Source: an uncultured Monoglobus sp.
Lineage (GTDB): Bacteria; Bacillota; Clostridia; Monoglobales; Monoglobaceae
Direction: 5' to 3'
Length of the DNA stretch: 34,239 nt
Assembly: GCA_947630505.1 (NCBI GenBank)
Contig: CANRHV010000029.1
Location: 1-34,239, forward strand
Numbering within the stretch: position 1 is the stretch's first letter; each line of letters starts with the position of its first letter. The notes beneath the pieces were generated by a model. It searched no databases. It was not told where the DNA came from and worked only from the letters and a program-made list of their open reading frames with translations. The position numbers and the translations under genes were made by a program. Positions 31,223 through 34,191 of the stretch are shown here, one piece after another.

Positions 31223-31306
31223 GCGGGTATGGCGGAATTGGCAGACGCGCCGGATTTAGGTTCCGGTGTCTTTGACGTGGAGGTTCAAGTCCTCTTATCC
31301 GCACCA
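31223..31306 (+). tRNA. tRNA-Leu (anticodon TAG)
   Basis: This is an 84-nt class II tRNA with encoded CCA. The acceptor GCGGGTA/TATCCGC has one G-U pair. Anticodon arm CCGGA-TTTAGGT-TCCGG gives TAG, there is a long variable arm, and the T arm is GAGG-TTCAAGT-CCTC. It marks the left edge of the accessory patch with the IS and retron remnants. Confidence 0.95.
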
Positions 31307-31313
31307 AATAACG

Positions 31314-31356
31314 AAAATCCGAACCCTCACCCGATCGGCGAAGGTTTCGGATTTTT
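31314..31356 (+). terminator. Terminator after tRNA-Leu
   Basis: AAAATCCGAACC (31314-31325) pairs with GGTTTCGGATTTT (31343-31355) with one bulge and is followed by a T-rich tract (TGTTTTGG). Confidence 0.75.
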
Positions 31357-31412
31357 GTTTTGGATTTGAAACATGACATTTTAATTTACTTAGATATATT
31401 TATGGATTAATG

Positions 31413-31985
31413 TCAATAAAGTAGACAGAAAAAAGCGAAGAATTATACACGCATAAACATCGCCTCTTTCTGATTTGGCGTCAGACCGTCATTATGAGAA
31501 TGCGGTCTTACAGAATTGTAGAATCCATTTATGTAAGTGAACAAACTTTGTTTAAGTTCCGTAATGCTACGATATGTTCTTCTGTCGGTTTCCTCTTTCT
31601 TCAAGTATTTGAAGAAGCACTCCATAACAGCGTTATCATAAGGGTGTCCTTTTGCGGAAAATGACTGCACAATATTCATTGTGTCAAGATACTGTCTGAA
31701 AGCCACAGAGGTAAATTGAGAGCCTCTGTCGGTATGAAATATCAGACCGGCATGCATATCTCTTGAAGCCAAAGCCAAGTTAAGCGTATCCATAGCCAGT
31801 TGTGTATCAATATGATTAGACACCTTGTAAGCTATAACCTTTCTTGAATACAGGTCTAAAATAGCACATACATAACAAAACCTTCCGGCAACCCGAATAT
31901 ATGTAAAGTCACAAACCCATACCAGATTTGGAGCAGGTTGGTTAAAATTCTGTTTGAGAATATTAACGCATTCGCTGTCATCCAT
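31413..31985 (-). mobile_element. Remnant of an IS3-family insertion sequence
   Basis: The fragment consists of a 3' part of orfB and a probable terminal end TGTCAATAAAGTAGACAG (31413-31430) just past the transposase stop. The opposite end, orfA and the N-terminal part of orfB are missing; the sequence changes to AT-rich DNA at about 31986. It is therefore a dead copy. Confidence 0.6.
31443..31985 (-). pseudogene. IS3-family transposase (OrfB), 5'-truncated
   Basis: This encodes 180 residues of an rve-type DDE transposase. The catalytic triad is intact: Asp26 (VWVCDFTYI), Asp86 (FHTDRGSQFTS) and Glu122 (NAVMECFFKYLKKE), with the 35-residue D-to-E spacing typical of IS3. The C-terminal FYNSVRPHSHNDGLTPNQ is also typical. 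Full OrfB proteins have roughly 100 more N-terminal residues (helix-turn-helix region) and are made by frameshift with OrfA; here a TAA lies directly before the first ATG and no orfA is seen. The remaining frame lacks a convincing ribosome binding site. It is judged inactive. Confidence 0.85.
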
Positions 31986-32037
31986 TTATATCATTTTTTA
32001 ATATATACATAATATTTTGAAATATTTTTAAAATTAG

Positions 32038-32066
32038 TTGAAAAATTTTTTATAACATGATATACT
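32038..32066 (+). promoter_or_regulatory. Promoter of the retron RNA
   Basis: TTGAAA (32038-32043) and TATACT (32061-32066) are 17 nt apart and predict a start near 32073, within 3 nt of the first base of the a1 repeat. A second possible -10, TATAAT (32070-32075), abuts a1. Confidence 0.65.
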
Positions 32067-32075
32067 TTTTATAAT

Positions 32076-32219
32076 GAACTTAGGGGAATTTGTTTTTCGT
32101 TAGCGATACGCAACGTAGTATTTAAAGTCTACCGGAGATTCGCAAATTGCATTCTTTTGAAACTTTAAGCCTTATAATTTAATACTTTCTCTCAGAAAGT
32201 AGAAATTCCCCTATAGTTC
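32076..32219 (+). ncRNA. Retron msr-msd-like non-coding RNA
   Basis: A 144-nt segment is bounded by long complementary ends, GAACTTAGGGGAATTT (32076-32091, a1) and AAATTCCCCTATAGTTC (32203-32219, a2), pairing over 16 bp with a single bulged T. Between them are a hairpin CGTTAGCG-ATA-CGCAACG (32098-32115, one bulge), a 7-bp helix TTAAAGT/ACTTTAA (32122-32128 with 32162-32168) and a hairpin TACTTTCT-CTC-AGAAAGTA (32183-32201) just before a2. This a1-msr-msd-a2 layout directly before a reverse transcriptase start is the retron pattern. The branching G would be G32092 (next to a1) or G32103 (in TTAGC). The msr/msd boundary is not determined. Confidence 0.7.
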
Positions 32220-32237
32220 TTTTAATGGAGGTATTAT

Positions 32238-32543
32238 ATGTTTATTAAATCTGATGACGAAATTGTAAAAAAGTTTTATAATATGCAATCACGATTAGAT
32301 GTAGCTAATTTAACAGAAATTAACGAAAAAAGTCTAAGATATTTTTTATATAAACGACGTCCCGATAATATGTATTCAACATTTGTGGTAGTAAAAAGAA
32401 ATGGTGATTTTAGAGAAATTTGTTCACCATTTAATGAACTTAAAAATATTCAAAATAAGCTTAAATATGTATTAGAATTAGTTTATAAACCAAAAATTTG
32501 CGCTTATGGTTTTATTAAAGGTAATGCGAAAAGATTCTGTTAA
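32238..32543 (+). pseudogene. Retron-type reverse transcriptase, truncated after the N-terminal region
   Basis: This encodes 101 residues from the ATG at 32238, which has GGAGG 7 nt upstream. LRYFLYKRRPDNMYSTFVVV (33-52) and KRNGDFREICSP (53-64) with ELKNIQNKLKYVLELVY (67-83) and ICAYGFIKG (87-95) match the first conserved blocks of retron reverse transcriptases. Normal proteins are about 300-350 residues. Here the GKSI-like residues expected after YGFIKG are absent, NAKRF stands where the retron NAxxH motif belongs, and a stop follows at once. The palm domain with YADD and the VTG RNA-recognition motif are missing, and no continuation is found in any frame downstream. A deletion is the likely cause, so the protein cannot be active. 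Confidence 0.8.
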
Positions 32544-32545
32544 AG

Positions 32546-32570
32546 CGGGGAAACCAATTTTGGTTCCCCG
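32546..32570 (+). terminator. Hairpin after the truncated reverse transcriptase
   Basis: CGGGGAAACCA (32546-32556) pairs with TGGTTCCCCG (32561-32570) with one bulged A around ATTT. The tail TCTGTATTT is only moderately U-rich. It may be the original retron operon terminator left after an internal deletion. Confidence 0.6.
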
Positions 32571-32715
32571 TCTGTATTTAATATAACATTGAAATAACAA
32601 TCCGCCCCATTTTATCGTTAATATACTGAGTTTAATGCTTATCCTGTTGTTCCCACCACTATTATTCTTTCACCTTAATTGGTCTCTCACTTTTAATGCC
32701 AATTACAGCTGTATA

Positions 32716-34011
32716 CTAAATGCAAAATGCCGCGTAGAGCGGAACCGTCTTTTTATTGTTTTCAAATCCGAAATTTTTTGACGACAGCTTGATCGCATAG
32801 TCAGGCTTATATGTTTTCATATAAACATTAAGGCTTTTGGCTTTGGTATTGTCGGCGGACTTGACCTCTATCGGTATAAGTCTGCCTTCGCGTTGAATAA
32901 CAAAGTCTATCTCCGCTCCGCGGTCGGACTCCCAATAATGCGTTTGATAACCGTTGATCTCAAGCTGCACATTTACATAATTTTCAGCCATGCCGCCCTT
33001 AAAATCATTAAGCTCATCAACCATATACAGCACATCATTCGCCGCCAAATTCTTTTTGGAACACAGCAGTCCCAAATCCGAAACATATATTTTAAACGCG
33101 TCAATATTGCGATAGTTTTCAAGAGGCTTTTTAATTTGCTCGACCTTGTATATCCGAGACACGATTCCTGATAAACTCAGCCACTCTATGGCGTTCTCAA
33201 ACTCCTTTGCCCGTCCGCCTTTCTTTATCAACTTATATTGAAAACGCGTGTTCTTCTTTGAAAGCTGCACGGTTATGCTGTCATAGGCAAGTCTCGTCTT
33301 TTTGATCTCGTTTAAATTATTGTATTTGCTCATATCGTTTAAATAACTCGCGAGTATCGTGTCCTGAGTGTGGCGCACAAGAATATAATCGTTGGTTTCA
33401 ACAAATTGCTTCACGCACTCCGGCATACCGCCGACGACAAGATATTTGCGATACAGCTCCATCGCTGTATCATGCAAAGCCGACGGCATAGGACTGTCGG
33501 TTTTAAAGCATTTTTTGATTCTGTCAACCAGCGCGTCCTCACCCATCGCGAGCATAAATTCTTCCATATCCATAGGATACAGCGTTTTCATATCTACCTT
33601 GCCGACGGGAAATGAAAACGCCGCTCTGTTGACCGCGACTCCGAGCAGACTGCCCGCGACAATAATATGATAATCGGGCGCGTCCTCGCAAAAATATTTC
33701 AGCGAAGTCAAAGCCCTTTCGCAAAGCTGAACTTCGTCAAACACTATCAGAGTTTTTTCTTTTACTATAGTCTGCCCCGCGATATGCGACAGAATCGGAA
33801 TTAAATACCCGGGACTGATATTCTCGGCAAATGTGTCATTCAGCTTTGGATTTGTTTCAAAATTAAAGTATGCCACATTCTCATAATGCGTGCGCGCAAA
33901 CTCAAGCACCGAATAAGTTTTGCCAACCTGCCTTGCGCCCTGCAAGATCAGCGGCTTGCGATGCTCGCTCTCCTTCCATTCTTCCAAAAAGCTCATAATT
34001 TTTCGATACAT
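32716..34011 (-). CDS. AAA ATPase with C-terminal DUF4143 domain
   Basis: This encodes a 431-residue ATPase. The ATG at 34011 follows GGGGGTG at 8 nt; a longer frame starting at 34104 would include the promoter. The N-terminal AAA_14 domain has Walker A GARQVGKT (25-32) and Walker B TLIVFDEVQ (87-95). The second half is DUF4143, with a terminal segment GAEIDFVIQREGRLIPIEVK whose spaced D...ExK resembles the PD-(D/E)XK nuclease fold. Such proteins are abundant in gut anaerobes and variable between strains; their function is unknown. The gene faces the retron remnant convergently and is not part of its operon. Confidence 0.9.
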   Translation of the reverse strand: MYRKIMSFLEEWKESEHRKPLILQGARQVGKTYSVLEFARTHYENVAYFNFETNPKLNDTFAENISPGYLIPILSHIAGQTIVKEKTLIVFDEVQLCERALTSLKYFCEDAPDYHIIVAGSLLGVAVNRAAFSFPVGKVDMKTLYPMDMEEFMLAMGEDALVDRIKKCFKTDSPMPSALHDTAMELYRKYLVVGGMPECVKQFVETNDYILVRHTQDTILASYLNDMSKYNNLNEIKKTRLAYDSITVQLSKKNTRFQYKLIKKGGRAKEFENAIEWLSLSGIVSRIYKVEQIKKPLENYRNIDAFKIYVSDLGLLCSKKNLAANDVLYMVDELNDFKGGMAENYVNVQLEINGYQTHYWESDRGAEIDFVIQREGRLIPIEVKSADNTKAKSLNVYMKTYKPDYAIKLSSKNFGFENNKKTVPLYAAFCI

Positions 34012-34041
34012 ATCAACACCCCCCGATATTAAGATGATAAC

Positions 34042-34070
34042 ATTATAACACACATTCGCGTAAAAATCAA
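34042..34070 (-). promoter_or_regulatory. Promoter of the DUF4143 ATPase gene
   Basis: Minus-strand TTGATT (34070-34065) and TATAAT (34047-34042) are 17 nt apart, 30 nt before the ATG at 34011. Confidence 0.8.
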
Positions 34071-34191
34071 TGGCGTTAATAAAATAATTTACATTAAACT
34101 GCATAAATATTTTTGCAATTTCAACACAATTATACAGAAATATATTATTTTTATATTGCTTAACTTAAGAAATAAAGGATAACTTAGAATT

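What the first reader, a model, noticed from the sequence alone, without database searches (positions are those of the whole stretch)
32038..32219. Well-formed retron non-coding RNA with its own promoter
Seen: TTGAAA-17-TATACT predicts transcription starting within 3 nt of a 16-nt sequence (32076-32091) that pairs, with one bulge, with 32203-32219. Hairpins lie between, and the structure ends 18 nt before an RT start codon. Known: retrons consist of a1-msr-msd-a2 RNA directly upstream of the RT. Inference: this is a clostridial retron RNA, short and AT-rich, with no GC-rich msd stem, which may explain why it would escape detection.
Basis: partly seen in the sequence, partly recalled or inferred. 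Interest (0 to 1): 0.8.

Follow-up and report, generated by a model that had tools for sequence, protein, structure and literature searches.

The report
Retron RNA beside a broken RT gene
The sequence is a genuine retron RNA gene, the template that a phage-defence reverse transcriptase copies into DNA, but in this genome its enzyme gene is cut off after 95 codons by a DNA rearrangement, so it is most likely a recently broken copy of a known kind of system.

Summary
A 16-bp a1/a2 stem (32076-32091 with 32203-32219, one bulge) encloses an msr hairpin 18 nt before an RT start codon.

The decisive evidence is comparative. Two intact relatives in other clostridial genomes (L002, L101) encode 552-562 aa RT-trypsin-like-protease fusions (PADLOC retron type XI) that are about 53% identical to the RT fragment. 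Both carry an RNA at the same place, with the identical core TTTTCGTTAGCGATACGCAACG. A covariance model built from these two alone finds window 32073-32222 (58.7 bits, E 3e-10). Six of 16 a1/a2 pairs show two-sided compensatory change in the structure-fitted alignment.

From 32523 the DNA is a prophage lysis-region fragment, so 'NAKRFC*' is not RT. No other matching retron RT was found in the genome. The second hairpin conserved in relatives is missing, and the inner folds beyond hairpin 1 do not exceed chance. The promoter hexamers are weak evidence alone.

The locus is a decayed, horizontally acquired, 24% GC retron remnant: a new member of a known kind. Whether type XI RNAs have been described could not be checked.

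The parts
32038..32066 (+). sigma-70-type promoter TTGAAA-17-TATACT (TG before the -10)
   Evidence: a TATAAT-like -10 box sits upstream of a1 in six of seven relatives shown
32076..32091 (+). a1 arm
   Evidence: 16 pairs with 32203-32219; compensatory change against L002/L101
32092..32092 (+). G next to a1, probable priming (branching) guanosine (inferred)
   Evidence: G at this place in window, L002 and L101; spacing to the hairpin like Eco2 G15 (PMC12405507)
32098..32115 (+). msr hairpin 1 CGTTAGCGATACGCAACG
   Evidence: identical in L002 and L101; folds in all three
32116..32202 (+). remaining msr and msd template region; lacks the hairpin with ACATATG loop seen in L002 and L101; CAGAAAGTAGA block before a2 partly conserved
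   Evidence: alignments; inner fold not significant
32203..32219 (+). a2 arm (one bulged base)
32238..32522 (+). N-terminal 95 codons of a retron reverse transcriptase, truncated before the catalytic YADD motif
   Evidence: 53-54% identical to L002 and L101 RTs
32523..32651 (+). prophage lysis-region fragment that supplies the false end NAKRFC*
   Evidence: 88% identical to G009:C147:700-831, also in G007:C14, between a PHROG phage ORF and an endolysin-like gene
31403..31982 (-). IS3-family element remnant on the upstream side, transposase lacking about its first 200 residues (marks the left edge of the retron remnant)

Best explanation
The feature is the non-coding RNA gene (a1-msr-msd-a2) of a retron whose RT belongs with the RT-protease (type XI) retrons of clostridia. 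In an intact relative the RNA would be transcribed from just before a1, a1 and a2 would pair, the RT would bind hairpin 1 and start 2'-5' primed DNA synthesis at the G beside a1 (G32092 here), copying the msd leftwards from next to a2. The resulting msDNA would hold the C-terminal trypsin-like protease in check until phage infection. In this genome the RT gene was cut at 32522/32523 by recombination with prophage DNA, so only the RNA and 95 RT codons remain and no msDNA is expected. Shown here: the RNA anatomy, homology, covariation, truncation and lack of a replacement RT. Inferred: transcription, priming G, msDNA, protease control, loss of function.
For: Fold z -4.35. L002 and L101 have intact RT plus Trypsin_2 domains, with PADLOC best match RT-Protease_XI at 567 and 535 bits, and an RNA with the identical core hairpin upstream. 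A model built without the window finds it at 58.7 bits, E 3.4e-10. In the a1/a2 helix 97.9% of cells pair and 6 of 16 pairs changed on both sides; 1 of 500 shuffles reaches the whole-structure score. Weaker model hits lie directly upstream of RTs in L148, L157, L004, L006, L156 and L016. The a1/a2 finder recovers the Ec86-type RNA as positive control. Truncation and prophage junction. No other RT match in the genome even at E 10.
Against: Only three close members were found, so covariation rests on few sequences, two of which share nearly the same arms. The fragment alone scores slightly higher for type XII (RT-TIR) than for type XI models, and a tree of 91 columns does not resolve its position, so the lost effector is inferred. 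The second conserved hairpin is absent here. The classical AGC priming context is not at G32092. Nothing shows transcription. The junction could be an assembly error.
Confidence: 0.93

Rival explanations
1. The RNA is still functional: it is transcribed and used in trans by another reverse transcriptase of the cell, or serves as a decoy for retrons of incoming elements.
For: Promoter, a1/a2 and hairpin 1 are intact, although the RT is broken.
Against: No other match to a type XI RT was found in the 98% complete genome at E up to 10. The second conserved hairpin is missing. An intact look is also expected if the break is recent.
Confidence: 0.04
2. The window RNA belonged to an RT-TIR (type XII) or RT-Toprim (type I-C) retron rather than an RT-protease one; the mechanism is the same but the effector differs.
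For: The fragment scores 82 bits for XII, 77 for XI and 62 for I-C models.
Against: The highest-scoring single RTs are type XI (53-54% identity, 102-104 bits; the next RT has 76 bits, and others 47% identity or less), and only these share the 22-nt core; the type XII E. coli plasmid locus has a different RNA (L019).
Confidence: 0.08
3. The structure is an ordinary leader or terminator-like hairpin or chance pairing upstream of an RT fragment.
For: Strong duplexes are common in the GC-richer parts of the window.
Against: Identical core and retained, compensated pairing at the same place in two intact retrons.
Confidence: 0.01

Closest known systems
Retron type XI (RT fused to trypsin-like protease; PADLOC RT-Protease_XI)
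   Same: RT N-terminus, closest relatives L002 and L101 and the shared RNA core belong to it.
   Different: Here the RT ends at residue 95, the protease is absent, and the second conserved hairpin is missing.
Retron type I-C (Eco2/Ec67, RT-Toprim)
   Same: Same order a1-G-short unpaired stretch-hairpin-msd-a2 directly before the RT; weak model hits in Gram-positive relatives with RT-Toprim-like ORF lengths.
   Different: Different hairpin and arm sequences, different effector; G context AGA in the I-C-like relatives, TGT here.
Retron-Eco1 (Ec86)
   Same: a1/a2-flanked RNA upstream of RT, found by the same procedure.
   Different: Priming G lies in AGC right beside a1; here the AGC lies inside hairpin 1 and the G beside a1 is in TGT.

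Membership tests
Retron ncRNA (a1-msr-msd-a2) | inverted-repeat arms at the two ends, pairing kept among relatives | tested here: met
Retron ncRNA (a1-msr-msd-a2) | lies directly upstream of a retron-type RT gene | tested here: met
   18 nt before an RT start codon; RT stub matches retron models; intact RTs in homologous loci
Retron ncRNA (a1-msr-msd-a2) | priming guanosine beside a1 | tested here: inconclusive
   G32092 at this place in three of three, but not in the classical AGC context (PMC6868368)
Retron ncRNA (a1-msr-msd-a2) | production of branched msDNA | not testable with these tools
   needs nucleic acid extraction
Functional retron | complete RT with YADD catalytic motif | tested here: not met
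   homology ends at codon 95, downstream DNA is prophage; no second copy
Retron type XI | RT fused to a trypsin-like protease | tested here: not met
   absent in the window; present in both closest relatives
Retron type XI | RT sequence closest to type XI RTs | tested here: inconclusive
   best single-sequence matches are type XI; HMM scores XII 82, XI 77 bits

The most novel reading that the evidence does not exclude
The 22-nt core (TTTTCGTTAGCGATACGCAACG) with varying a1/a2 arms defines an RNA subfamily of clostridial RT-protease retrons that has not been described, with priming at a G outside the AGC context. The window copy shows that the RNA can be recognised even when the RT is gone.
Probability: 0.35. 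Interest if true: 0.42.

Novelty: new member of a known kind. Interest (0 to 1): 0.3.

Why it matters
It shows that a retron RNA can be recognised from sequence alone next to a broken RT, and it gives an anchored anatomy (arms, core hairpin, probable priming G) for the RNA of RT-protease retrons in clostridia, which makes msDNA tests on the intact relatives straightforward. In this genome itself it is a defence-system remnant.

Tried and rejected
Rfam found nothing, but it also misses the Ec86-type RNA, so this is uninformative. Searches for the RT and the core in phages and viral contigs gave no close relative. No relative of the RT was found in the other genomes of the family (38 searched, own included) or order (51 searched). 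The missing RT part was looked for elsewhere in the genome and not found. A tree of the N-terminal 95 residues was unresolved around the window. An msd structure shared by all three members was not found; inner folds differ and the window's is not significant. The key classification and census papers on retrons are not held, so whether type XI RNAs were already described stays open. An ungapped count of 11-12 two-sided changes in a1/a2 was replaced by the more cautious six from the structure-fitted alignment.

Full report
The described elements are present at the stated coordinates. TTGAAA (32038-32043) and TATACT (32061-32066) are 17 nt apart with TG before the -10. GAACTTAGGGGAATTT at 32076-32091 pairs over all its 16 bases with 32203-32219 when one base is bulged, and a2 ends 18 nt before an ATG at 32238. 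The strand folds at -39.2 kcal/mol, z -4.35. The signal comes from the arms and hairpin 1; the stretch between the arms has z -1.07. Arm pairing as good occurs in 1 of 2000 shuffles, and promoter-like sites are frequent in this AT-rich stretch, so the single sequence is suggestive and the proof has to be comparative.

The ORF after the RNA matches retron RT models (best in PADLOC: XII 82, XI 77, I-C 62 bits) and is 53% identical to the start of an intact RT in another genome of the same class (L002). A scan of genome contigs found a second one, in Clostridium sp. DSM 17811 (L101). Both are RT plus Trypsin_2 proteins with RT-Protease_XI as best PADLOC model. Both have, just upstream, 16-bp perfect arms around the identical core TTTTCGTTAGCGATACGCAACG.

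A covariance model was built from L002 and L101 alone. It finds window 32073-32222 with 58.7 bits, E 3.4e-10; the next match in the 34 kb has 16 bits. In the structure-fitted alignment of the three, the a1/a2 helix has 97.9% of cells paired and six pairs with changes on both sides. One of 500 shuffles reaches the score, and sliding the partner by 1-3 columns drops pairing from 96% to 38-53%. Among 61 further loci, six of the eight best weak matches lie directly upstream of the RT gene (L148, L157, L004, L006, L156, L016), several of them with RT ORFs of the length of RT-Toprim proteins. A further 62 loci gave only one weak match, elsewhere. The general a1/a2 finder recovered the Ec86-type RNA in L080-L085, a positive control.

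Anatomy by comparison with Eco2, whose RNA has IRa1, branching G15, four unpaired bases and one stem-loop before the msd (PMC12405507): the window has a1, G32092, five unpaired bases, and hairpin 1 (32098-32115). The G is at the same place in L002 and L101. The AGC usually found at the priming G (PMC6868368) occurs here only inside the stem of hairpin 1, away from the a1 end, so G32092 is preferred, as an inference. L002 and L101 share a second hairpin with loop ACATATG that the window lacks. A TATAAT-like -10 box precedes a1 in L002, L101 and four of five more distant loci printed, which supports transcription from just before a1.

The locus is broken. RT homology stops at codon 95. From 32523 the DNA is 88% identical to an intergenic piece next to an endolysin-like gene in a genome of the same genus, so the last residues NAKRFC are not RT. 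No other match to a complete RT of this kind exists in the genome at E up to 10. The retron part (about 31990-32522) matches none of the other 11 genus genomes and has 24% GC against 44% for the window. It sits between an IS3 remnant lacking its 5' part, placed after a tRNA-Leu gene, and the prophage piece, followed by an AAA_14/DUF4143 gene that is 96% identical to one in a different setting in G009. This is a horizontally acquired remnant in a mosaic region. An assembly error at the junction cannot be excluded here.

The family is best described as RT-protease (type XI) affinity, with the effector inferred from relatives because it is missing here. Function in this genome is unlikely. Whether RNAs of type XI retrons have been described before could not be settled, because the classification papers are not in the held library.

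Noticed in passing
window 31223-31402: tRNA-Leu gene after uvrC; in two relatives (G009, G012) similarity to the window stops right at the tRNA 3' end (in G012 the contig also ends there), so this may be an integration site.
   Followed up: partly
window 31403-31478: About 75-bp IS3 end sequence present in many near-identical copies in this genome and in genus relatives.
   Followed up: no
window 32716-34104 (-): AAA_14/DUF4143 ATPase gene; the stretch is 96% identical to G009:C73 in another genomic setting, so it appears mobile.
   Followed up: partly
L103, L104, L106, L108, L015, L018: Cyanobacterial relatives of the RT share another a1/a2-flanked RNA with a hairpin like CCGTTGTTGATCCTGCGACGG before RTs of about 350 aa, followed in L015 and L018 by a hypothetical gene and an ATPase gene: possibly a related retron type with separate effectors.
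   Followed up: no
L148, L156, L006, L157, L004: Gram-positive relatives, several with RT-Toprim-like lengths, share arms like CGTGTGGCTAG / GTAGCCACACG and a hairpin CTTGTGTTTCGCAAG or similar.
   Followed up: partly
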